Shown here: piece after piece, positions 2,352 through 64,000 of the stretch | Position numbering within the stretch: position 1 is the stretch's first letter | How the letters are laid out: every line of letters begins with the position of its first letter | Source of the DNA: Methylobacter sp. | GTDB taxonomy: Bacteria > Pseudomonadota > Gammaproteobacteria > Methylococcales > Methylomonadaceae | NCBI GenBank assembly: GCA_004299305.1 | Contig: SCPZ01000096.1 | Coordinates: forward strand, 1 to 64,000 | Length of the DNA stretch: 64,000 nt | Reading direction: 5' to 3' | Notes under the pieces: model-generated | Seen by the model: only the letters and a program-made list of their open reading frames with translations | Databases searched by the model: none | Told to the model about the DNA's origin: nothing | Program-made: the position numbers and the translations under genes

Positions 2352-3449
2352 ATGTCTTATTGTCTTCCTCTTGCCGCTATCGATACCGCTGTTTTTCCGG
2401 GCAGTTATGCTGCTGCCCGGCAACGCTGGCTGGTGCAGTTAAATAAACTATCCTATCCTGCTCAATGCCTGCCTTATCCCTGTCCCGGCACCGGGCCTGA
2501 CGGCGAACAACTGATTACCGACACGGCTTGGATCGGCCCCGAAGACGCGTCAAGAGTGCTGGTTTTGCTCGGCGGAACGCACGGCATTGAAGGCTTTACC
2601 GGCAGCGCGGTGCAAATCGACCTGCTGGGTTTAATTGCCGAGGCGCATGTCATTATTCCGGTCGATACGGCGGTGTTGATGATCCACGCCCTGACGCCCT
2701 GGGGTTATGCCTGGCGACGGCGTTGCGATGCGGACGGCGTTGACCTTAATCGCAATATCGTCGATTTTTCCAAGCCCTTGCCTGAAAACAAAGACTACGA
2801 GCTGCTCAAAAATACGCTTTATCTGCCGAATGCCGCACAACGGAAAATCGCCTTGGCCGAGTTTGAGCAACGCCATGGCCGTGTGGCGCTGGAAAAGGCG
2901 GTCAGCGCCGGGCAATACAACGACCCGTCAGGCTCGTTTTATGGCGGAAAAGCGCCTACACACGGCAGGCTAGTCTGCGAAGACTTGATGCGCCGATATG
3001 CATTGCAACAGCGGGATTTGGCTGTCGTCGACCTGCATACCGGCCTAGGCTCTTACGGCTATGGCGAACTTATTTGCGACCATCAGCCGGACAGCGCCGG
3101 AACGCGGGCCGCCCAAAACCTGTATGGCGAGTCGGTTACATTGCCTTTTTTAGGTACGTCCAGCTCGGTGCCGAAAACAGGCTTGCTGGATTACGCCTGG
3201 CACGCGATCATGAATGAACGCAGCTGTTACATCACCCTGGAATTCGGCACCTTCAGCACCGACCAGCTGTTTGAAATCTTGCTGCGCGATCATCAATTGT
3301 GGGCGCAAACCGATAACCAACAAGCCCGCCGGGAACACAGCAAAGTTATGTATCGTCATTTTTGCCCCGATGACCGAGCTTGGCGGGAGATGGTGTTATT
3401 TCGCGCCAGACAGGTTATTGCACAAGGCTTGCAAGGGGTATCTGCTTGA
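2352..3449 (+). CDS. M14-like zinc carboxypeptidase/deacylase (DUF2817)
   Basis: A 365-residue protein of the DUF2817 branch of M14 metallopeptidases. GGTHGIEGFTGSA (residues about 75-87) supplies the H-x-x-E zinc ligands, VDLNRN gives the substrate arginine region, and VVDLHTGLGSYG the third zinc histidine. ITLEFGTF is a likely site of the catalytic glutamate. There is no signal peptide, so it is probably cytosolic. It likely hydrolyses an amide or peptide bond made by the neighbouring ATP-grasp ligase; that link is inference from context. The next gene overlaps its stop codon, so the two are translationally coupled. Confidence 0.85.
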   Translation: MSYCLPLAAIDTAVFPGSYAAARQRWLVQLNKLSYPAQCLPYPCPGTGPDGEQLITDTAWIGPEDASRVLVLLGGTHGIEGFTGSAVQIDLLGLIAEAHVIIPVDTAVLMIHALTPWGYAWRRRCDADGVDLNRNIVDFSKPLPENKDYELLKNTLYLPNAAQRKIALAEFEQRHGRVALEKAVSAGQYNDPSGSFYGGKAPTHGRLVCEDLMRRYALQQRDLAVVDLHTGLGSYGYGELICDHQPDSAGTRAAQNLYGESVTLPFLGTSSSVPKTGLLDYAWHAIMNERSCYITLEFGTFSTDQLFEILLRDHQLWAQTDNQQARREHSKVMYRHFCPDDRAWREMVLFRARQVIAQGLQGVSA

Positions 3450-4546
3450 GTATTTTAATCCGCCCTGCCCTGTTAACCGATCTTGACCAGTTGGTGACGC
3501 TTGAAAAAACCTGTTTCGACACCGACCAATTAAGCCGACGCAGTTTCAAACACTGGATAACGACGGAACATCGCGCCCTGCTGGTTGCAGAGCAAGAAAA
3601 AATAATTAGCGGCTATGTGCTTATTATTTATCACCCCGGCACCCGTCTGGCCCGAGTCTACTCGCTGGCTGTCGCACCCACGCAACGAGGCGCGGGCGTC
3701 GCCAAATCGCTGATGACGGCAGGCGAACAGGCCGCCAATGATGCCGGAAGACTGTACCTGCGCCTTGAAGTCAGTGTCGATAACACGGCGGCGATCAAAC
3801 TTTACCAAGCGCTGGGCTACCAGAAATTCGGCATCTACCGCGATTACTATGAAGATCACAAGGACGCATTACGTTACCAAAAACGCATCCGCCGTTATCG
3901 CGATACCTTGCAATACCGCTCGGTGCACTGGCTAAGACAAACCACACCGTTTACCTGCGGCCCCGCATCGCTGATGATGGCTATGCACGGCTTAAACCGG
4001 GCCTATCAACCCTCGCAGGAAGAAGAGATCAACTTGTGGCGCGAAGCTACAACCATTTTTATGACCTCGGGACATGGCGGTTGTCACCCGATAGGCCTGG
4101 CGCTGGCGGCAAAACGGCGGCACTTTACGGTTGAAGTCTGGGTTAACCAAACCGGAACGCTGTTTATAGACGGCGTGCGCAATGAGGAAAAAAAACAGGT
4201 CGTGGAATTGGTCGACAACTGCTTCAAGCGCGAGGCGACTGAACAAAACATCAAAATACATTACGCCAATATCAGCCAAAACGACTTGATCGGCGCGTTC
4301 AAGTCCGGGGCGATACCGTTGATCCTAATCAGCACCTTTCGGATGGACAGGAAAAAAGCCCCGCACTGGGTGGTAATGAGCGGCTTCGACGATGATTGCC
4401 TGTACATGCACGACCCGGACCCGGAAGAAGAGCGGCAAAGCGAGCTCGATTGCCAGTTTATTCCTATTGCCTGCGAGGATTTCGATAGGATGTCCAGTTT
4501 CGGCAAAAGTCGGCTCAGGACGGCGGTGATTATTTGGCCTGGGTAA
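3446..4546 (+). CDS. GNAT acetyltransferase fused to C39-like peptidase
   Basis: A 366-residue two-domain protein. The start chosen is TTG at 3446, which overlaps the previous gene's TGA as TTGA and has AAGGGG upstream. Residues 1-145 are a GNAT domain with the acetyl-CoA loop VAPTQRGAGVAKSLM. Residues 160-366 are a DUF3335/C39-like papain-fold domain with TPFTCGPASLMMAM holding the likely nucleophile Cys, and KAPHWVVMSGFDD and YMHDPDPEEE holding the His and Asp. With the RimK-like ligase and the M14-like deacylase it suggests make, modify and cleave steps on a small peptide. The substrate is not known. Confidence 0.85.
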   Translation: MSILIRPALLTDLDQLVTLEKTCFDTDQLSRRSFKHWITTEHRALLVAEQEKIISGYVLIIYHPGTRLARVYSLAVAPTQRGAGVAKSLMTAGEQAANDAGRLYLRLEVSVDNTAAIKLYQALGYQKFGIYRDYYEDHKDALRYQKRIRRYRDTLQYRSVHWLRQTTPFTCGPASLMMAMHGLNRAYQPSQEEEINLWREATTIFMTSGHGGCHPIGLALAAKRRHFTVEVWVNQTGTLFIDGVRNEEKKQVVELVDNCFKREATEQNIKIHYANISQNDLIGAFKSGAIPLILISTFRMDRKKAPHWVVMSGFDDDCLYMHDPDPEEERQSELDCQFIPIACEDFDRMSSFGKSRLRTAVIIWPG

Positions 4547-4665
4547 TTGGCCGTATTCATCGCTACACTTTAAGTTTTTTCAAAACTTATGCCATTTAGA
4601 CTTGTGTTATTAAATCGATTCAGCGATAATAGCCGTCCTTTAGCCAGTACGGCTGATGTTTTAAT

Positions 4666-4775
<110 letters not shown>

Positions 4776-4806
4776 GCCCAACTCATACTTATCTTTCGAG
4801 CCTGCA

Positions 4807-6408
4807 ATGAATTATCAGGTTCTCGCCAGAAAATGGCGCCCCCATAATTTCACAGAAGTTGTCGGACAAGAGCATGTCGTCAAATCGTTAATGAACGCTT
4901 TGCAACATGATCGGCTCCATCACGCCTATTTATTTACCGGAACGCGCGGCGTAGGCAAAACCACCATTGCCCGGATTCTAGCCAAAGCCATCAATTGCGA
5001 AAATCTCCAGGATTTTAATCCTTGCGGCGTGTGTAGCGTGTGCCGAGATCTGGATGAAGGACGCTTCCTTGATTTAATCGAAGTCGATGCGGCATCGCGC
5101 ACCAAGGTTGAAGATACCCGCGATTTACTCGACAACGCACAATACGCACCCAATCAAGGCCGCTATAAAGTCTACCTGATCGACGAAGTACACATGCTGT
5201 CCGGGCACAGTTTCAATGCCTTGTTAAAAACGCTGGAAGAGCCGCCTGCACATGTAAAATTCCTGCTGGCCACCACCGATCCCCACAAAATTCCTGTCAC
5301 CGTACTGTCCCGCTGTCTACAGTTCAACCTCAAGCGCTTGCTGCCCAGCCAGATTTTCAGCCAAATGGAGTTCATACTCCAACAGGAACACATTGAAGCC
5401 GAATCAGGCGCCTTAAAATTATTATCGCGCGCCGCCGACGGCAGTATGCGCGACGGCTTAAGCCTGCTGGACCAAGCCATTGTTTACGGCAACGGCAAAG
5501 TCGGCATGGACGACGTCAACGCGATGCTGGGTACGGTCGCGCAACAACCCGTTGATGACATTTTAACGGCGCTGGCGGTGGGCGATGCGGCGGCGATACT
5601 CGATAAAATAAATGAGATAGCCAACTTAACGCCGGACTTTAGCGATGTACTGCGACAGATTTTGCAAGTCCTGCATCGCATCGCCTTGCTGCAACAAATA
5701 CCTGGCGCTATCGATCATGATTTTGATGTAGATATGATTGCGGCATTAGCAGCCAAGCTCACCCCCGAAGATGTGCAACTTTATTACCAAATAGGTTTGG
5801 TAGGACAACGCGACCTGGATTTAGCGCCCGACCCGCGTAGCGGCTTTGAAATGGTCATGTTGCGCATGTTGACCTTCAGGCCGGTCGGCACAGCATCTAC
5901 ACCGGTTAAATCGGCCCCAGTTCGCCAGCCCATTGTCAAAGCCCAGCCACAGCCTGTTTATAATCCGCCCACAACGGAGCAACCCGCCGCCGTCGCCGAA
6001 AAAAGCTTGCCGGAAGCCGTGACCCAACATCACGATTCCAATTGGATGGACATGATTACTGCAATGAAAATCAGCGGTTTAACCCGAGAGTTGGCCCACA
6101 ACTGCGTACTGGAAAGTATTGACGACAGCATCTGCACCTTAATATTGGACCCCGGACATAAACAACTGCGCAGCAACCGCACCGAAGAAAACTTACAAAA
6201 GGCACTACAGGCTTATCGCAAAGCCCCTTTAAAACTGGTAATCAACACCGAAAAAACAACAATTGCCACGCCCGCCGTGCAATTGACCAAAGCGCGCGAA
6301 GACAAACAGCAAGCAGCGGTTGACGCGATCAATGCAGACGAAAATATCCAGGCATTAAAAGAACACTTTGGCGCCAGGATCATGCCCGGCACCATAGAAC
6401 CCATCTAA
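4807..6408 (+). CDS. dnaX: DNA polymerase III subunit gamma/tau
   Basis: The clamp-loader ATPase, 533 residues. Walker A is GTRGVGKTT (about residue 45), four cysteines near residues 64-79 form the zinc module, Walker B is LIDEVHML, and sensor 1 is LLATTDPHKIP. Past residue 370 comes a proline- and glutamine-rich linker and then a tau-type C-terminal domain, shorter than in E. coli (643 residues). The gene order dnaX-ybaB-recR is the standard proteobacterial one. An A6 run at 5999-6004 lies in the linker, but its codon phase does not match the E. coli frameshift signal. Confidence 0.97.
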   Translation: MNYQVLARKWRPHNFTEVVGQEHVVKSLMNALQHDRLHHAYLFTGTRGVGKTTIARILAKAINCENLQDFNPCGVCSVCRDLDEGRFLDLIEVDAASRTKVEDTRDLLDNAQYAPNQGRYKVYLIDEVHMLSGHSFNALLKTLEEPPAHVKFLLATTDPHKIPVTVLSRCLQFNLKRLLPSQIFSQMEFILQQEHIEAESGALKLLSRAADGSMRDGLSLLDQAIVYGNGKVGMDDVNAMLGTVAQQPVDDILTALAVGDAAAILDKINEIANLTPDFSDVLRQILQVLHRIALLQQIPGAIDHDFDVDMIAALAAKLTPEDVQLYYQIGLVGQRDLDLAPDPRSGFEMVMLRMLTFRPVGTASTPVKSAPVRQPIVKAQPQPVYNPPTTEQPAAVAEKSLPEAVTQHHDSNWMDMITAMKISGLTRELAHNCVLESIDDSICTLILDPGHKQLRSNRTEENLQKALQAYRKAPLKLVINTEKTTIATPAVQLTKAREDKQQAAVDAINADENIQALKEHFGARIMPGTIEPI

Positions 6409-6441
6409 CGAACCTCTCACAACGAGAATGGAGACAAGCAA

Positions 6442-6765
6442 ATGAAAAACGCACTCGGCAACATCATGCAACAAGCCCAAAAAATGCAGGAAGACTTTAA
6501 AAAAGCCCAGGAAGAGCTTAACGCCATGCAAGTCATGGGCGAATCCGGCGGCGGCCTGGTAACCATCCTAATGACCGGCAAACGCGAAGCCAGAAAGGTC
6601 ACCATCGATCCATCCTTGCTGGGCGATGACAAGGATATGCTGGAAGACATGGTTGCGGCAGCTATCAACGATGCGGTCAATAAAGTCGCAAAAATGAAAA
6701 AAGAAAAAATGACCGATGTCACGTCAGGACTACCCCTACCTCCCGGATTCCAACTGCCTTTTTAA
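6442..6765 (+). CDS. ybaB: YbaB/EbfC nucleoid-associated protein
   Basis: A 107-residue YbaB/EbfC family protein, a small dimeric DNA-binding protein. The start has a GGAGA ribosome site. The N-terminal helix ([20 protein letters not shown]) and the central [20 protein letters not shown] sheet are typical. It lies 33 bp after dnaX and ends 1 bp before the recR start, so the three genes probably form one operon. Confidence 0.95.
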
Positions 6766-6766
6766 T

Positions 6767-7363
6767 ATGCAGCAAAAAGGCTTATTGGGGCAGTTGATAC
6801 AGAACTTATGCTGCCTGCCGGGCGTCGGCCCTAAAACCGCCCAACGCATGGCGTTTCACCTGCTCCAACGCGACCGCAACGGCGCGATTATGCTGGCCCA
6901 AACGCTGCTGAGAGCGATAGAAGCTTTAGGCTATTGCAAGCAATGCCGCACCTTGACCGAAGGCGATATTTGCGAAATCTGCGCCGACACCTCAAGGGAC
7001 GATTCCGTCATCTGCATCGTAGAGAGCCCCGCCGACGCTTGGATTATCAACCAGGCAACCGCATTCAAAGGACGCTATTTTGTGCTGCACGGGCGGTTAT
7101 CGCCGCTGGACGGCATAGGCCCGGATGAGCTCGGCCTGGACCAGCTTGAACAGCGGCTCGCAACAGGCCCTATCAAGGAACTGATCCTGGCGACCAATTC
7201 CACAGTTGAAGGCGAGGCAACCGCCTATTTTATCGGCGAGCTGGCCAGAAAACACCAAGTGCAGGCCAGCAGAATCGCCCACGGCATCCCCATGGGCGGC
7301 GAGTTGGAATTTACCGACAGCAACACCTTATCTCATGCCTTTAATGGCCGCGTAGAAATGTAA
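6767..7363 (+). CDS. recR: recombination mediator protein RecR
   Basis: A 198-residue RecR, working with RecF and RecO to load RecA on gapped DNA. The start [14 protein letters not shown] was chosen over an upstream in-frame Met inside ybaB because it aligns with E. coli RecR. Visible parts are the helix-hairpin-helix [14 protein letters not shown], the zinc cysteines in CKQCRTL and CEICAD, and a Toprim domain with [10 protein letters not shown] and [13 protein letters not shown]. The start lies one base after the ybaB stop. Confidence 0.96.
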
Positions 7364-58662: not shown

Positions 58663-60420
58663 ATGATCGAAGACATCAAAAAAACACTCTGGGCCACCGC
58701 CGATAAACTGCGCGCCAACATGGACGCTGCCGAATACAAGCACATCGTACTCGGCCTGATCTTCGTCAAATACATCTCCGACACCTTCCAGACCCGCCGC
58801 ACAGAACTGATGCGCAAGTTTACCGACAGCCGGGACGACTACTATCTGGAAGACTCCGACCAGGAATTGATCGATACCGAACTCGAAGACCGCGACTACT
58901 ACAAGGAAGTCAACGTATTCTGGGTGCCGGAAGCCGCGCGCTGGGAAAGCCTGCGCGCGCTGGCCAAGCAAGCCGACATCGGCAAACGCATCGACGACGC
59001 GCTGTCACTGATCGAAGCCGAAAACCCCAAGCTCAAAGGCATCCTCGACAAACGCTATGCCAGAGTACAACTGCCCGACGGCAAGCTCGGCGAACTGGTC
59101 GATCTGGTCTCCAAAATCGGCTTTGGCGAATCCGGCAATGCCGAAGACCGCGCCAAAAATCATGCCCGCGATTTGCTCGGCCAAGTCTATGAATACTTCC
59201 TCGGCCAGTTCGCCAGCGCCGAAGGCAAGCGCGGCGGGCAGTTCTATACACCCGCTTCAATCGTCAAAACCCTGGTCGCCGTACTCGCCCCGCATCACGG
59301 TCAGGTGTACGACCCCTGCTGCGGCTCCGGCGGCATGTTTGTGCAATCGGAAAAATTTATCGAAGCCCACGGCGGCAAGTTGGGCGACGTCTCCATTTAC
59401 GGCCAGGAAGCGAATCCGACCACATGGCGGCTGGCCGCGATGAACCTCGCGATACGCGGCATCGATTTCAACCTGGGCAAAGAACCCGCCGACAGCTTCG
59501 TGCGCGACCAACACCCGGATCTTCGCGCCGATTTCGTACTCGCCAATCCGCCGTTCAACATCTCCGACTGGTGGCACGGCAGCCTGGAAGGCGACCCACG
59601 CTGGGTTTACGGCACGCCGCCGCAAGGCAACGCCAATTACGCCTGGCTGCAACACATGCTGTACCACTTAAAACCCACAGGCCGCGCCGGAATCGTGCTC
59701 GCCAACGGCTCGATGTCGTCAAGCCAGAACTCAGAGGGCGACATCCGCCGGGCGATGGTCGATGCCGACAAAGTCGAAGTCATGATCGCCCTGCCCGGCC
59801 AATTATTTTTTAATACCCAGATCCCCGCTTGCCTGTGGTTCCTGGTCAAGGAAAAGCGCGCCCGGCAAGGCGAAGTCCTGTTCATCGACGCCCGCAAACT
59901 CGGCAGCATGATCAGCCGGGTGCAATGCGAGTTCACCGATGACGTTATCGAGCGCATCGCCGGAACTGTCGAAGCATGGCGTAATTCCTCATCTCCCTTC
60001 GTAAGCAATGCTGTTGACTTAAGCAGTTTAAAGCCCTCTCCAGAGGGAGAGGGTTGGGTGAGGGGAAAGCAAAATAAGGAAAAAGACTTATTTAAATCCC
60101 CTCATCCCAACCTTCTCCCCGAGGGAGAAGGAGCGCCCGCTATTAAGTCAACAGTATTACCGCACACGGGTGAGGGGGCAAACACTTACGCCGACATCCC
60201 CGGCTACTGCCGCAGCGTCACCCTGGCTGAAATCGCCGAACACGGCCATGTCCTAACCCCCGGCCGCTACGTCGGCGCAGAAGCCATTGAAGACGATGAC
60301 GAAGCGTTTGCCGACAAAATGCAAAAGCTGACCGAAACGCTGGGCGAGCAAATGGCCAAAGGCGCGGAACTGGATCAACTGATACGGCAGAAGTTGGGAG
60401 GCTTGGGCTATGAATTCTGA
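58663..60420 (+). CDS. hsdM: type I restriction-modification methyltransferase, with repeat insert
   Basis: A 585-residue N6-adenine methyltransferase subunit. The N-terminal helical domain starts IEDIKKTLWATADKLR. SAM motif I is VYDPCCGSGGMFVQ and the catalytic motif IV is LANPPFNISDWW. Residues about 450-497 come from a 144-bp palindromic element (KPSPEGEGWVRG, LLPEGEGAP) placed between the catalytic domain and the C-terminal part YADIPGYCRSVTLAEI. The frame is intact, so activity is plausible. It overlaps the DUF1016 gene by 11 bp. Confidence 0.95.
   Translation: MIEDIKKTLWATADKLRANMDAAEYKHIVLGLIFVKYISDTFQTRRTELMRKFTDSRDDYYLEDSDQELIDTELEDRDYYKEVNVFWVPEAARWESLRALAKQADIGKRIDDALSLIEAENPKLKGILDKRYARVQLPDGKLGELVDLVSKIGFGESGNAEDRAKNHARDLLGQVYEYFLGQFASAEGKRGGQFYTPASIVKTLVAVLAPHHGQVYDPCCGSGGMFVQSEKFIEAHGGKLGDVSIYGQEANPTTWRLAAMNLAIRGIDFNLGKEPADSFVRDQHPDLRADFVLANPPFNISDWWHGSLEGDPRWVYGTPPQGNANYAWLQHMLYHLKPTGRAGIVLANGSMSSSQNSEGDIRRAMVDADKVEVMIALPGQLFFNTQIPACLWFLVKEKRARQGEVLFIDARKLGSMISRVQCEFTDDVIERIAGTVEAWRNSSSPFVSNAVDLSSLKPSPEGEGWVRGKQNKEKDLFKSPHPNLLPEGEGAPAIKSTVLPHTGEGANTYADIPGYCRSVTLAEIAEHGHVLTPGRYVGAEAIEDDDEAFADKMQKLTETLGEQMAKGAELDQLIRQKLGGLGYEF
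60011..60154. mobile_element. 144-bp palindromic element in frame inside hsdM
   Basis: Perfect 12-bp terminal inverted repeats: CTGTTGACTTAA and TTAAGTCAACAG. Inside lie two inverted REP-like units (60034-60065 and 60097-60131) of the same family as 12417-12672 and 30526-30617. The length equals 48 codons and no stop is introduced. Confidence 0.88.
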
Positions 60421-61510
60421 CCTACAGTTCTACAGTCACCTGTTGACTGACATCAAGACCCGAATTCAAGGCGCCCAAGTACGTGCCTTGTTGGCGGTGA
60501 ACAGCGAGTTATTGCGGCTATATTGGGAAATCGGCCAAGTATTGCATGCCCGCCAGCAAGAAAAGGGCTGGGGAGCCGGAGTAATTCCTAAACTAGCCAT
60601 CGATTTGCACAACGAATTGCCCGAGCTCAAAGGATTTTCCGAGCGTAACCTCAAGCGTATGCTGGGATTTTACCGCGCCTATCCGCAGCCTGAGCAATTT
60701 GTGCCACAAGCAGTGGCACAAACGCACGATCTAAAAATGCCACAGCTTGCGGCACCCGTTGATGGCGAAAATCTGCTCTGGCAAATTCCCTGGGGGCATC
60801 ACGCACTGTTACTGGAAAAAATCAAAGATCCGGCGGTACGTTGCTGGTACATGATGTACAGCCTGATGCACGGCTGGAGCCGTAATATTCTGACGATGCA
60901 GATCGAAACCCATGCGCATCAGCGGCAAGGGCGGGCAGTCACCAACTTCAGCACCAGTCTGTTGGCTCCGCAATCCGATCTTGTTCAGCAAACCTTGAAA
61001 GACCCGTACTTGTTCGATTTTCTTACCCTGGAGAAAGATTTCCACGAACGCGAACTCGAAACCGGGCTGGTTCGGCATGTGGAAAAATTCTTGCTTCAAC
61101 TCGGTCAAGGCTTCGCCTTCGTTGGTCGGCAATATCTGGTTTCAGTAGGTGAAGACGACTTTTATATCGACCTCCTGTTTTACCACCTGAAATTGCGTTG
61201 TTTCGTGGTGATTGAACTCAAACGCGGCCCTTTCAAGCCAGAATACGCAGGCAAGATCAACTTCTACTGTAACCTGGTAGATGACCGGCTCAGACATGAA
61301 CACGATCAACCGACCATTGGCCTATTACTCTGTCAGGACAAGAACCGCGCTATTGCAGAATACGCCTTGCGCGGCATCGACAAACCCATCGGCGTGGCCG
61401 AATACCAACTGTTGCGGGAGCTACCGGAAACACTCGCCAGTAGCTTACCCAGTATTGCCGAAATAGAAGCCGAACTCGGAGACGAAATGGAAGGCATTGA
61501 TGAGGAATGA
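60410..61510 (+). CDS. DUF1016/YhcG-type PD-(D/E)XK nuclease
   Basis: A 366-residue DUF1016 protein. The N-terminal domain (QVRALLAVNSELLRLYWEIG, KGFSERNLKRML) is typical. The C-terminal nuclease core shows DDFYIDLLFYHLKLRCFVVI followed by ELKRG, the D-ExK motif. Such proteins are frequent in restriction and defence loci. A second hsdM tail lies downstream, which suggests this gene was inserted between hsdM and the rest of the operon. Confidence 0.9.
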   Translation: MNSDLQFYSHLLTDIKTRIQGAQVRALLAVNSELLRLYWEIGQVLHARQQEKGWGAGVIPKLAIDLHNELPELKGFSERNLKRMLGFYRAYPQPEQFVPQAVAQTHDLKMPQLAAPVDGENLLWQIPWGHHALLLEKIKDPAVRCWYMMYSLMHGWSRNILTMQIETHAHQRQGRAVTNFSTSLLAPQSDLVQQTLKDPYLFDFLTLEKDFHERELETGLVRHVEKFLLQLGQGFAFVGRQYLVSVGEDDFYIDLLFYHLKLRCFVVIELKRGPFKPEYAGKINFYCNLVDDRLRHEHDQPTIGLLLCQDKNRAIAEYALRGIDKPIGVAEYQLLRELPETLASSLPSIAEIEAELGDEMEGIDEE

Positions 61511-61540
61511 AGCTATGGATGTGTCTGTGAATAAAGATAT

Positions 61541-61607
61541 CGGGTTACGTTGTGCTCGGCAACTGCTCCATTCGTTGCTCTGCCTTCTGCATACAAGTCG
61601 TAACCCG
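61541..61607. repeat. CGGGTTACG repeat holding the 50-bp module
   Basis: CGGGTTACG and CGTAACCCG form the outer arms. The loop holds a degenerate copy of the 50-bp module (CTCGGCAACTGCTCCATTCG and onward, 61555-61601). Confidence 0.75.
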
Positions 61608-61616
61608 AGCTACGCG

Positions 61617-61659
61617 ACTGATACGCCTGAAGTTGGGAGGCTTGGGGTATGAGTTTTGA
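61617..61659 (+). pseudogene. remnant of a second hsdM 3' end
   Basis: The sequence around 61630-61659 reads KLGGLGYEF and stop, identical in protein to the hsdM end at 60391-60420 but with synonymous changes. Similarity extends a little upstream (ACTGATACG). It marks a second hsdM tail on the far side of the DUF1016 gene. Confidence 0.85.
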
Positions 61660-61700
61660 ACAAAAATCAACATTGGCAATTGGTGTAGGAGGTAACGAAT

Positions 61701-62096
61701 ATGTCTCAGCTGAGCATTAAAGCCCTGGAATTAGCAGTGGCCGCTTTGGAGCAGGGCTTGATTGAATACGAGCAGTACCCGCAGCTGCTGACTGTCCGGG
61801 ATGGCGTGATCCAGCGCTTTGAAATAGCGATGGATGTCTCTAGGCAAATCTTGGTGCGTGTTCTAAAAGAGGTCTTTGGCCTTGAGGAAGCAAACGCCAA
61901 AAAAGACACCTTTAGGGAAGCAGCGAAACTCGGGTTGATTGCCGATGCCGAAGCTTGGCTAGGGCATCTTGCCGCCCGCAATCGCACATCGCATACTTAC
62001 GATTCAGTCATTGCAGCACAGGTTTTCGCCCACACACCGACTTTTCTGCCCGATGCACAAGATTTGCTGAAGCGACTCCGCCCCTATGCTGATTGA
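61701..62096 (+). CDS. HEPN-family toxin (HI0074-like, HepT type)
   Basis: A 131-residue helical protein of the nucleotidyltransferase substrate-binding/HEPN family. ARNRTSHTYDS contains R-x4-H-x-Y, the catalytic motif of HepT RNases whose tyrosine is modified by the MntA antitoxin. A strong AGGAGGT ribosome site precedes it. It overlaps the next gene, which begins with the MntA domain, by 11 bp. Confidence 0.9.
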   Translation: MSQLSIKALELAVAALEQGLIEYEQYPQLLTVRDGVIQRFEIAMDVSRQILVRVLKEVFGLEEANAKKDTFREAAKLGLIADAEAWLGHLAARNRTSHTYDSVIAAQVFAHTPTFLPDAQDLLKRLRPYAD

Positions 62097-63858
62097 TATA
62101 CGCCCCGACCATTTGCAAATAGTTCAAAAAATTTTGCAGCGGCATGTTCCGCAGTATGCCGTGTGGGCATTTGGTTCTCGCGCCAAGTGGACGGCCAAGG
62201 ATTATTCGGATCTGGACTTATGCGTCGTTTCCGATAAGGCGCTGGATTTTCGTGTCTTGGGTGCCTTGGCGGAAGATTTCTCCGAATCTGATTTGCCCTA
62301 CAAAGTGGATGTGGTGGATTGGGCCACGACCAGCGAGTCGTTCCGAAAAATTATCGAGCAAGACAAGGTAGTTATTAAGAAAGAACAGCAAACGCAAATT
62401 AGCCATGTAGGTCGGGTTAGCCCATCGGGCGTAACCCGACAGGCTGCGGATGCACCTGCGAACGAAGATGTCGGGTTACACTACGTTAACCCGACCGCGA
62501 TTGATTGGCCGATTTTACCTTTAGAAGAGTGTCTTGACGCGCTAATCGACTACCGAGGGAAGACACCGGAGAAAACAAACTCAGGTATTCCATTGGTTAC
62601 GGCGAAAATTATCAAAGGCGGCCGAATTGAGAAGGCATCTGAGTTCATATCAAAAGATGGTTACGACGCATGGATGCGTAGAGGTATTCCACAAGCCGGT
62701 GATGTCGTGATGACAACTGAAGCCCCTCTTGGAGAGGTCGCTCAACTTGGCAAGGAAAAGATCGCACTCGCTCAGCGAGTAGTTACGCTCCGTGGGAAAT
62801 CTGGCCTTTTGGATAGCACGTATCTTTTGTATTTGCTGCAAACCGAAGAGATGCAAGAGCAGCTAAAGGCTCGTGCAACCGGAACAACGGTTTTGGGCAT
62901 CAAGCAAAGCGAACTGCGTAAAATATCAGTAACCCTCCCACCAATCGACTTGCAGAGAAGTTCTGCGTCTGTACTTGCTGCAATCGACGCACGAATTGAC
63001 ATACTACGCGAAACCAACGCCACCCTCGAAGCCATCGCCCAAGCCCTGTTCAAATCCTGGTTCGTGGACTTCGACCCCGTGCGCGCCAAACAGCAAGGCC
63101 GCGAGCCGGAAGGCGCTGTACAGGGATGTACGAGTGCCGCTGAAGGCAGGATTCCGGTAGCGGCCCTGGATACAGAAACCGCCGCGCTCTTTCCCGACAG
63201 CTTCGAAGAATCAGAACTGGGCTTGGTGCCGAAGGGGTGGCGGGCTGGAAATATTGGCGACAATGCGATTTATCTGAGTCGTGGAATTTCACCAAAGTAT
63301 TTAGAGGAAGGTGGCGTTTTGGTTATTAATCAAAAGTGTATCCGCGACTTTATCCTTGATCTCAGTAAAGCGCGTCGGCACGATCCTTTACAAAGAAAGA
63401 TTGATGGGCGCGAACTATCTATCGGTGATATTTTGGTAAATTCAACTGGCGTCGGAACACTAGGGCGCGTTGCTCAAGTCCTGTCCTCTGACGAGTTGAT
63501 GATAGTGGATTCACACGTTACGGTTATACGCGCAAGCGAAAATTTAACATGGAATTATCTCGGTCTTTCGATGATGCGAAGACAAGTTGAGATTGAAAGT
63601 CTGGGAGAAGGATCGACCGGTCAAACCGAATTAAATCGAAGTAAACTTGCTGCTTTGAAGCTAATCATTCCACCTAAAGAAATCTTACTTGCATTTGATG
63701 AAATTGCACTTCCTTTGCGTCAAAGATTTGCAGGCAACCTTAAACAAGCCCAAACCCTAGCCACCCTACGCGACACCCTGCTCCCCCGCCTGATCTCCGG
63801 CCAGCTGCGCCTGCCGGATACGGCGGAAATAGGCACCGAAACCATCAACGGAAGCTGA
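62086..63858 (+). CDS. MntA antitoxin fused to type I specificity subunit HsdS
   Basis: A 590-residue fusion. Residues 1-105 are a minimal nucleotidyltransferase: FGSRAKWTAKDYSDLDLCVV fits GS-x10-D-x-D, and VDVVDWA gives the third acid. Residues about 106-138 are repeat-encoded linker. Residues 140-590 are HsdS with two target-recognition domains: WPILPLEECLDALIDYRGKT starts the first, ATLEAIAQALFKSWFVDF is the central conserved helix, LVPKGWRAGNIGD starts the second, and LATLRDTLLPRLISGQLRL is the C-terminal conserved region. HsdS lacks its own start codon. Residues about 340-358 (AVQGCTSAAEGRIPVAA) may be another repeat-derived insert. Confidence 0.92.
   Translation: MLIDIRPDHLQIVQKILQRHVPQYAVWAFGSRAKWTAKDYSDLDLCVVSDKALDFRVLGALAEDFSESDLPYKVDVVDWATTSESFRKIIEQDKVVIKKEQQTQISHVGRVSPSGVTRQAADAPANEDVGLHYVNPTAIDWPILPLEECLDALIDYRGKTPEKTNSGIPLVTAKIIKGGRIEKASEFISKDGYDAWMRRGIPQAGDVVMTTEAPLGEVAQLGKEKIALAQRVVTLRGKSGLLDSTYLLYLLQTEEMQEQLKARATGTTVLGIKQSELRKISVTLPPIDLQRSSASVLAAIDARIDILRETNATLEAIAQALFKSWFVDFDPVRAKQQGREPEGAVQGCTSAAEGRIPVAALDTETAALFPDSFEESELGLVPKGWRAGNIGDNAIYLSRGISPKYLEEGGVLVINQKCIRDFILDLSKARRHDPLQRKIDGRELSIGDILVNSTGVGTLGRVAQVLSSDELMIVDSHVTVIRASENLTWNYLGLSMMRRQVEIESLGEGSTGQTELNRSKLAALKLIIPPKEILLAFDEIALPLRQRFAGNLKQAQTLATLRDTLLPRLISGQLRLPDTAEIGTETINGS
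62404..62497. repeat. palindromic repeat forming the MntA-HsdS linker
   Basis: GTCGGGTTAG...GTAACCCGAC (62411-62440) and GTCGGGTTA...GTTAACCCGAC (62470-62495) are two hairpins of one family. The related CGGGTTACG repeat occurs at 61541. Both are read in frame through the fusion gene. Confidence 0.85.
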
Positions 63859-63859
63859 T

Positions 63860-64000
63860 ATGGCACTGAACTTAGGCAAGCGCCTGATCGAACGCTTGCA
63901 AACCAACCCGGACACCAGCTACACGGCGCGTGAGATTGCGCTGTGGGTTTTTGAAAATTTTCCTGACGAATGCGCCGAGAAGAAGGCGGCCAGCACCGGG
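63860..64000 (+). CDS. 5' end of an HTH-domain protein of the hsd locus (partial)
   Basis: A frame starting MALNLGKRLIERLQTNPDTS, 1 bp after the hsdS stop, runs off the right edge; 47 residues are visible. YTAREIALWVFENFPDECAE resembles the N-terminal helix-turn-helix of HrgA-like proteins found beside restriction genes. hsdR is not visible and may lie further right. Confidence 0.7.
   Translation, partial: MALNLGKRLIERLQTNPDTSYTAREIALWVFENFPDECAEKKAASTG

What the first reader, a model, noticed from the sequence alone, without database searches (positions are those of the whole stretch)
61701..63858. HEPN/MntA toxin-antitoxin whose antitoxin is fused to HsdS
The HEPN protein has R-x4-H-x-Y and the MntA domain has GS-x10-D-x-D, so a type VII toxin-antitoxin pair is complete. 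The antitoxin continues in frame into a full type I specificity subunit, which has lost its own start codon. HsdS production therefore depends on MntA translation, and antitoxin level or location may depend on HsdS assembly with HsdM. This could make the toxin a guard for the restriction system: loss of HsdS would also remove the antitoxin. This is the best candidate for an undescribed system in the window.
Basis: partly seen in the sequence, partly recalled or inferred. Interest (0 to 1): 0.92.

Follow-up and report, generated by a model that had tools for sequence, protein, structure and literature searches.

The report
Toxin antidote fused to restriction-enzyme subunit
A bacterial DNA-restriction system carries, built into the subunit that reads DNA sequence, the enzyme predicted to keep a neighbouring RNA-cutting toxin switched off; the same fusion recurs in many unrelated bacteria, so it looks like a real and overlooked way of tying self-poisoning to antiviral defence.

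Summary
Confirmed. A HEPN gene (61701-62096, R-x4-H-x-Y) overlaps by 11 nt one 590-aa ORF (62086-63858): an HI0073/MntA-like nucleotidyltransferase (GS-x10-D-x-D) joined by a linker without ATG/GTG/TTG to a complete HsdS, between hsdM and hsdR.

It is no accident of this genome. Of 80 relatives found with the MntA domain alone, 59 continue in frame into HsdS, in about ten phyla by record title; 56 of 59 have hsdM upstream, and 52 of 56 aligned HEPNs keep R/H/Y. Here the fusion is young: a sister species has hsdM-yhcG-hsdS without HEPN/MntA, and a ~0.9-kb cassette entered the HsdS leader in frame. One relative fuses the domain to HsdM.

Best reading: a type VII-like toxin-antitoxin pair whose antitoxin is part of the type I methylase core, making the operon addictive. 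The stricter claim, that the toxin guards HsdS, is only partly supported: in decayed R-M loci MntA persists alone beside an intact HEPN, and six examined fusions lack a HEPN. Toxicity and AMPylation are untested. No description was found in the papers searched.

The parts
58663..60420 (+). hsdM, type I N6-adenine methyltransferase subunit (585 aa)
   Evidence: Pfam N6_Mtase 6e-105 and HsdM_N 5e-23; 93% identical DNA in sister species G018
60410..61510 (+). YhcG/DUF1016 PDDEXK nuclease gene (PADLOC PDC-S02) between hsdM and the toxin; accessory, detected in 4 of 59 fused relatives
61500..61556 (+). relic of the former HsdS start: ATG plus ~18 codons resembling the N-terminus of the unfused HsdS of G018
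   Evidence: about 61525-61556 and 62456-62487 align to the same 32 bp of L192
61557..62455 (+). inserted cassette (~0.9 kb, boundaries approximate) absent from the sister species; carries a donor hsdM tail, HEPN, MntA and the first repeat hairpin
   Evidence: blastn against G018 locus L192; flanking direct repeat D2
61617..61659 (+). 43-nt copy of an hsdM 3' end just upstream of HEPN (88% to 60378-60420; 97.7% to a second hsdM tail in G011)
61701..62096 (+). HEPN toxin gene, HI0074/HepT-like, R93-x4-H98-x-Y100
   Evidence: PF08780 1.5e-30, TIGR01987 above cut-off; phmmer to 1jog HI0074 1.7e-13
62086..62397 (+). MntA/HI0073-like nucleotidyltransferase (antitoxin) domain of the fusion, residues 1-104, G30-S31-x10-D42-x-D44, Trp35
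   Evidence: PF18765, PF01909; 1no5 HI0073 7e-31 and TM 0.95
62398..62502 (+). linker, residues 105-139, encoded by two palindromic repeats (TCGGGTTA...TAACCCGA 62412-62439; GGGTTA...TAACCC 62473-62492) and the HsdS leader; no ATG/GTG/TTG
   Evidence: pLDDT < 50 for 103-138
62503..63858 (+). HsdS domain of the fusion, residues 140-590: two target-recognition domains and two long helices
   Evidence: PADLOC 8e-125; model and Foldseek 1yf2 6e-23
63860..64000 (+). start of the next ORF of the operon (324 aa, no Pfam match); a SoFic-like Fic gene and hsdR (1057 aa) follow beyond the window on the same contig
   Evidence: L020 = C116:60001-69629

Best explanation
A type VII-like toxin-antitoxin pair has been built into a type I restriction-modification operon. 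The HEPN protein is a latent RNase toxin. The nucleotidyltransferase domain at the N-terminus of HsdS is its antitoxin and most likely neutralises it by adding AMP to the Tyr of R-x4-H-x-Y, as MntA does to HepT. Because the antitoxin is one polypeptide with HsdS, the methylase core (M2S in known type I enzymes) would carry an antitoxin, and deleting, silencing or failing to translate the fused gene also stops antitoxin supply, so cells that lose the operon are expected to suffer. The tether is flexible, so the coupling is mainly of synthesis, amount and location rather than rigid allostery. Shown by sequence: the fusion, motifs, operon, wide recurrence, constraint, cassette exchange. Inferred: toxicity, AMPylation, assembly with HsdM, addiction.
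For: 59 of 80 relatives picked by the MntA domain are HsdS fusions; 60 of 60 aligned fusions match both Methylase_S and Polbeta. Among the 59, hsdM lies within 2.5 kb upstream in 56 (the other three contigs begin 0.6-1.6 kb upstream), hsdR lies downstream in 43 of the 46 with more than 4.5 kb of sequence, HEPN R/H/Y is intact in 52 of 56 aligned, GSX10DXD in 58; in the 21 other loci hsdM is upstream in 7 and hsdR downstream in 4 of 15. Purifying selection in 18 hand-picked pairs (two of them solo loci): HEPN dN/dS 0.05-0.39 in 15 of 16 computable pairs, 0.88 in one pair with few changes; MNT 0.04-0.32 in 18. Asymmetric decay as expected of toxin and antitoxin: of 59 fusions the HEPN is absent, frameshifted or lacks R or H in 6, the MNT motif is lost in 1. 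Partner-swap: in L177 two HEPNs precede MNT::HsdS and the one away from MNT has lost its His. Re-fusion: L185 holds a new MNT plus a 3' part of an older one, in frame with HsdS; L184 fuses MNT to HsdM with its own HEPN. Relic R-M loci keep HEPN and MNT. Type VII chemistry for these motifs: PMC7641770 (passages).
Against: No toxicity or AMPylation data exist for these loci as far as I found. NCBIfam's HepT and MntA models match only below cut-off. Six examined fusions have no detectable HEPN-M gene: L080 and L230 (SLFN_AlbA_2 gene upstream), L110 (Abi_2; its HsdS is also broken), L228 (ApeA_NTD1 upstream and a broken MNT motif), L229 (another small NTase), L180 (nothing recognised), so the domain may have another role or be a remnant. 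Gene order is HEPN first, whereas MNT is said almost always to come first (PMC3710099). A fusion could persist simply because overlapping genes fuse easily: Acetobacter plasmids have MNT and HsdS as separate genes, overlapping by 8 nt in two of three opened. The window's own HEPN gave no dN/dS estimate (saturated).
Confidence: 0.6

Rival explanations
1. Guardian: the HsdS-borne antitoxin senses the state of the R-M complex. When a phage inhibitor (a DNA mimic, proteolysis, disassembly) disables HsdS, newly made HEPN is no longer AMPylated and cuts RNA, as PrrC does when EcoPrrI is inhibited.
For: Recurrent physical joining to HsdS and once to HsdM. In the set fusion outnumbers adjacent but separate MNT|HsdS, 59 versus L053 (decayed), L058 and L064. 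Trp after GSRxx in 66 of 68 fusions but 13 of 38 solo MNTs. PrrC and PARIS show that R-M guardians exist (PMC12707154 passages; PMC3710099 passages).
Against: Linker length and sequence are not conserved and the window's linker is modelled as disordered. MNT survives alone in decayed loci. AMPylation is covalent, so toxin release would need new synthesis or removal of AMP. The Trp difference is confounded by kinship: on well-supported branches only 5 independent pairs exist, on average 3.9 agree, 1.1 do not differ and (nearly) none opposes, median p 0.125; the query itself had Trp.
Confidence: 0.22
2. Neutral fusion: a TA pair that happens to lie between hsdM and hsdS became joined to HsdS by loss of a stop codon; the two halves work independently.
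For: Separate neighbouring genes in Acetobacter plasmids and in L064 show the unfused arrangement; the linker is floppy; MNT looks complete on its own.
Against: If neutral, splits should be about as common as fusions among MNT|HsdS neighbours, but 59 fused versus 3 separate were found in the set; well-supported branches force at least 7 changes of the fused label, so the joined state is re-formed or lost repeatedly yet stays the commonest; L185 and L184 show further in-frame joints. The set was chosen by similarity to a fused query, which inflates the ratio.
Confidence: 0.2
3. Regulator of R-M rather than TA: the MNT domain with HEPN as substrate-binding partner modifies HsdM, HsdR or HsdS to control restriction.
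For: PF08780 is named for substrate binding; six examined fusions lack a HEPN-M gene; a Fic AMP-transferase-like gene lies in the same operon.
Against: R/H/Y of the RNase/AMP-acceptor motif is intact in 52 of 56 HEPNs; HEPN and MNT persist together after R-M decay; the displaced HEPN of L177 lost its His.
Confidence: 0.1

Closest known systems
Type VII HepT/MntA (HEPN/MNT) toxin-antitoxin; HI0074/HI0073 branch
   Same: RX4HXY and GSX10DXD motifs, adjacent overlapping genes, HI0073 fold (TM 0.95, 56% identity)
   Different: Antitoxin is not a small free protein but the N-terminal domain of HsdS; toxin gene comes first; no helix follows the NTase fold before HsdS in the model, while a long C-terminal alpha4 helix matters in some MNTs (PMC11586414 passage)
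Type I restriction-modification (HsdMSR)
   Same: hsdM, complete HsdS with two TRDs, hsdR in one operon
   Different: HsdS has an enzymatic antitoxin domain; PADLOC already holds such proteins unremarked in profile PDLC03138 'Specificity_I', whose positions 1-102 match the MNT domain
PrrC / EcoPrrI guardian
   Same: HEPN RNase encoded inside a type I R-M operon (PMC3710099 passages; PMC12707154 passages)
   Different: No ABC-ATPase domain; control would be through an AMP-transferase covalently part of HsdS
HEPN fusions to R-M proteins (Anantharaman et al. 2013, PMC3710099)
   Same: HEPN toxins linked to R-M (passages)
   Different: There the HEPN itself is fused, to nucleases, helicases or ATPases; here the antitoxin is fused, to the specificity (and once the methylase) subunit

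Membership tests
Type VII toxin-antitoxin (HepT/MntA, class I) | HEPN with RX4HXY | tested here: met
   RNRTSHTY in window; 52 of 56 fused relatives with an aligned HEPN
Type VII toxin-antitoxin (HepT/MntA, class I) | adjacent MNT with GSX10DXD | tested here: met
   GSRAKWTAKDYSDLD; 58 of 59 relatives
Type VII toxin-antitoxin (HepT/MntA, class I) | score above NCBIfam's HepT and MntA equivalog cut-offs (a naming rule rather than a definition) | tested here: not met
   24.5 and 45.3 bits against cut-offs of 60; the HEPN does meet TIGR01987, HI0074 family. The 2020 paper counts PF08780/PF01909 pairs in class I (passages). I therefore write 'type VII-like'
Type VII toxin-antitoxin (HepT/MntA, class I) | HEPN toxic, neutralised by AMPylation of Tyr | not testable with these tools
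   needs expression and mass spectrometry
Type I restriction-modification | hsdM, hsdS with two TRDs and hsdR together | tested here: met
   hsdR at contig C116 66206-69379
Type I restriction-modification | sequence-specific methylation and restriction | not testable with these tools
   needs methylome and plasmid tests
PrrC/RloC anticodon nuclease guardian | HEPN fused to ABC ATPase | tested here: not met
   the HEPN gene is a single 131-aa domain
PrrC/RloC anticodon nuclease guardian | activation when R-M is inhibited | not testable with these tools
   needs an anti-restriction challenge

The most novel reading that the evidence does not exclude
A new class of R-M guardian: the type I methylase core is itself an AMP-transferase that keeps an RNase toxin disarmed, and disabling HsdS by a phage inhibitor or by loss of the operon arms the toxin. 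The effector is interchangeable (two HEPN branches, and perhaps Schlafen-AlbA_2, Abi_2 and ApeA genes in the same slot) and the antitoxin can ride on HsdS or HsdM.
Probability: 0.2. Interest if true: 0.92.

Novelty: new variant of a known kind. Interest (0 to 1): 0.77.

Why it matters
It would physically join two addictive defence modules: the enzyme that disarms a suicide RNase becomes part of the DNA-reading subunit of a restriction enzyme. That makes the question of how R-M systems and toxin-antitoxin pairs cooperate directly testable, gives a likely function to the N-terminal domain of proteins now annotated only as 'restriction endonuclease subunit S' (e.g. Zymomonas mobilis ATCC 10988 WP_014466389.1), and predicts that hsdS should be harder to delete than hsdM or hsdR in such hosts.

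Tried and rejected
Assembly or frameshift artefact: rejected, the architecture recurs in 59 of 80 loci. Fusion created only by the local palindromic repeat: rejected as a general cause. The repeat (modest in number: 21 places for the loose pattern against 10 for its reversed control, one place for the stricter one) supplies part of the window's long linker, but relatives have other linkers, median 17 aa. Phage origin: no match to the window's MntA in 50,697 phage records; 2 partial matches in viral contigs. Strict coevolution of HEPN with MNT: not seen; L042 and L044-L048 have MNT 68-76% identical to the window's but HEPN only 33-34% (L043 and L049, not in A2, have MNT 76% and 70% and HEPN 34%), so partners are exchanged. 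Trp35 as proof of functional coupling: suggestive only, median p 0.125. Rows dropped: L060 (truncated fusion, 229-aa ORF), L120 (contig end), L135 (the window again), L142 and L154 from the Trp count; L186 and L187 (very long branches) from the tree, where the counts were fused 70 of 73 with Trp, solo 13 of 39, adjacent-unfused 0 of 4, MNT::HsdM 0 of 1, two rows unlabelled; possible near-copies between the two locus sets were not removed. L080, L092, L094 and L110 are not in the HEPN alignment A3. A2 used 42 of 81 MNT domains. The set is biased towards the query: the best 80 of 107 hits. MAG-derived loci are frequent, so single-locus oddities (L100, L116, L177, L184, L185) could include assembly errors. 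Of 337 plasmid records matched (most probably through HsdS alone) I opened four. Zymomonas ZM4 hsdSp deletion (PMC8432527, passages) was looked at as a natural test, but I have no evidence that ZM4 carries the fusion. Absence from print is limited to searches of an open-licence library; seven papers were read as passages (PMC3710099, PMC7641770, PMC2701414, PMC12839542, PMC11586414, PMC12707154, PMC8432527), the rest seen as listings.
Full report
WHAT IS THERE. The window's last 5.5 kb hold hsdM (58663-60420), a YhcG/DUF1016 nuclease gene (60410-61510), a HEPN gene (61701-62096) and one long ORF (62086-63858) that overlaps the HEPN gene by 11 nt. The operon continues on the contig with a 324-aa ORF without Pfam match, a SoFic-like Fic gene and a 1057-aa HsdR. 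The HEPN is PF08780 and of the HI0074 family. The long ORF is an HI0073/MntA-like nucleotidyltransferase (residues 1-104) followed by HsdS (from about 140). There is no ATG, GTG or TTG between the domains. AlphaFold2 on an alignment of 60 fusions gave mean pLDDT 84 with both domains confident and residues 103-138 below 50. Foldseek matched the first domain to HI0073 at TM 0.95 (target), rmsd 1.0, and also to Shewanella and Legionella MNT antitoxins; the rest matched HsdS structures.

HOW THE FUSION AROSE HERE. A sister species (G018, same genus) has hsdM-yhcG-hsdS with a normal ATG and no HEPN/MntA between. About 61525-61556 and 62456-62487 of the window align to the same 32 bp of that HsdS leader, so 61557-62455 is, within some bases, an insert of about 0.9 kb (the flanking 76% direct repeat is D2). 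At its left side lies a 43-nt copy of an hsdM 3' end (61617-61659), 88% like the local hsdM and 97.7% like a second hsdM tail in G011. The old start codon and about 18 codons remain upstream as a relic (61500-61556), and the HsdS leader downstream of the insert lacks ATG and is read from MntA. My inference is homologous exchange with a locus of the type hsdM-HEPN-MntA::HsdS. Part of the linker comes from a palindromic repeat of modest copy number in this genome.

IT IS WIDESPREAD. I searched GTDB contigs with the 104-aa MntA domain alone: 107 relatives, the best 80 returned. The MntA ORF was at least 300 aa in 59 of 80; all 60 with the window match both Methylase_S and Polbeta. By record title the 59 include Proteobacteria, Chloroflexota, Poribacteria, Gemmatimonadota, Nitrospirae, Acidobacteria, Bacteroidetes/Rhodothermales, Spirochaetaceae, Brocadiaceae, Acetothermia and Truepera. 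Linkers are 5-45 aa (median 17); 30 of 60 have no ATG/GTG/TTG and 48 of 60 no ATG. In 398 Pseudomonadota genomes, 66 had an MNT match at 1e-8; HsdS fusions were verified in the window's genome and 11 others (G042, G054, G105, G121, G145, G165, G193, G197, G225, G294, G309), and G062 has a shortened one. On plasmids, Zymomonas mobilis ATCC 10988 pZMOB01 has HEPN-[MNT::HsdS]-hsdR annotated simply as 'restriction endonuclease subunit S', while three Acetobacter plasmids that I opened have MNT and HsdS as separate genes, overlapping by 8 nt in two of them. PADLOC's profile PDLC03138 'Specificity_I' matches the MNT domain with its positions 1-102 and matched 42 of 42 MNT domains given. So the architecture is in databases, but I found no paper that describes it (searches; seven papers read as passages, the others seen as listings).

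IS IT A TOXIN-ANTITOXIN? Of 59 fusions, hsdM lies upstream in 56 and hsdR downstream in 43 of 46 with room; HEPN R/H/Y is intact in 52 of 56 aligned and the MNT motif in 58. In 18 hand-picked pairs dN/dS is low for both: HEPN 0.05-0.39 in 15 of 16 computable pairs (0.88 in one pair with few changes; two saturated, among them window/L041), MNT 0.04-0.32 in 18. Decay is asymmetric: HEPN absent, frameshifted or without R or H in 6 of 59 (L080 and L110 absent, L094 frameshifted, L051, L099, L116 without R or H; L061 lacks only Tyr), MNT motif lost in 1 (L100, whose HEPN motif is intact). In loci where parts of hsdM, hsdS or hsdR are lost, HEPN and MNT remain whole, with MNT ending 4-10 residues after the domain (L053, L059, L082, L174, L175; in L166 the HEPN Tyr is Cys; in L059 the contig cuts hsdM and it is hsdR that is in pieces). 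In L177 two HEPN genes stand in tandem; the one next to MNT is intact and the other has lost its His. These facts fit a real toxin that needs its antitoxin, and suggest that MNT alone suffices.

WHY FUSED? In the set fusion is the rule when MNT precedes HsdS: 59 versus three separate cases, one of them decayed (L053, L058, L064); L060 is a shortened fusion and L120 ends at its contig end. A quick tree of 121 MNT domains needs 21 changes for the fused label, at least 7 forced by well-supported branches; few columns resolve it. So joining and splitting have recurred. L185 holds a new MNT, then a 3' part (profile positions 66-106) of another, then HsdS, in one frame: a cassette replaced inside an existing fusion. 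L184 has HEPN-[MNT::HsdM]-HEPN-[MNT::HsdS, shortened]; the MNT::HsdM joint is confirmed by Pfam and was the only one seen among 48 genomes of that order. A Trp follows GSRxx in 66 of 68 fusions and 13 of 38 solo domains, and in the Zymomonas fusion but not in the Acetobacter separate genes. With kinship allowed for there are 5 independent pairs on supported branches: on average 3.9 agree, 1.1 do not differ and almost none opposes, median p 0.125, so it is only a hint. The variable, disordered linker speaks against rigid signalling. I therefore prefer coupled supply and location (addiction of the R-M operon), with guardianship possible.

AGAINST. Six examined fusions lack a HEPN-M partner: L080 and L230 have a Schlafen AlbA_2 gene upstream, L110 an Abi_2 gene (and a broken HsdS), L228 an ApeA_NTD1 gene and a broken MNT motif, L229 another small nucleotidyltransferase, and L180 nothing recognisable in the 1.4 kb left on its contig. 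This may mean effector exchange in the slot before MNT::HsdS, or remnants. No biochemical evidence was found. Many loci are from MAGs, and the set was chosen by similarity to the window.

VERDICT.

Noticed in passing
L184 (G062:C222) 3316-6882: HEPN followed by MNT fused in frame to a complete HsdM, then a second HEPN and MNT::HsdS with an internal deletion: both core subunits carry antitoxin domains.
   Followed up: partly
L185 (G193:C191) 914-1228 and 782-904: Scar of another MNT (profile positions 66-106) between a new-type MNT and HsdS in one ORF: cassette replacement inside a fusion.
   Followed up: partly
L080 4728-6008; L230 2768-4522; L110 614-1594; L228 2154-3245: In fusions without HEPN-M, a Schlafen AlbA_2, Abi_2 or ApeA_NTD1 gene lies upstream of MNT::HsdS, as if the effector slot were interchangeable.
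   Followed up: partly
L177 3055-3851: Tandem HEPN genes of two branches before MNT::HsdS; the distal one has lost the catalytic His.
   Followed up: partly
window 60410-61510: YhcG/DUF1016 nuclease (PADLOC PDC-S02) sits between hsdM and the toxin and overlaps the hsdM end.
   Followed up: no
window 60010-60160: hsdM carries an in-frame stretch that looks repeat-coded (SPHPNLLPEGEG); a similar peptide (LPPEGEG) occurs in HsdR on L020.
   Followed up: no
window 61540-61608 and 62412-62492: Palindromic TCGGGTTA/TAACCCGA-type repeats upstream of the HEPN and inside the fusion linker; the 62412-62439 form has one place in the genome at exact match.
   Followed up: partly
L229 and L230 (Truepera, G442): Two further MNT::HsdS fusions of a distinct MNT type (Gly instead of Trp) with no HEPN or HsdM detected in the 10 kb taken, in a genome that also has the ordinary fusion.
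   Followed up: partly
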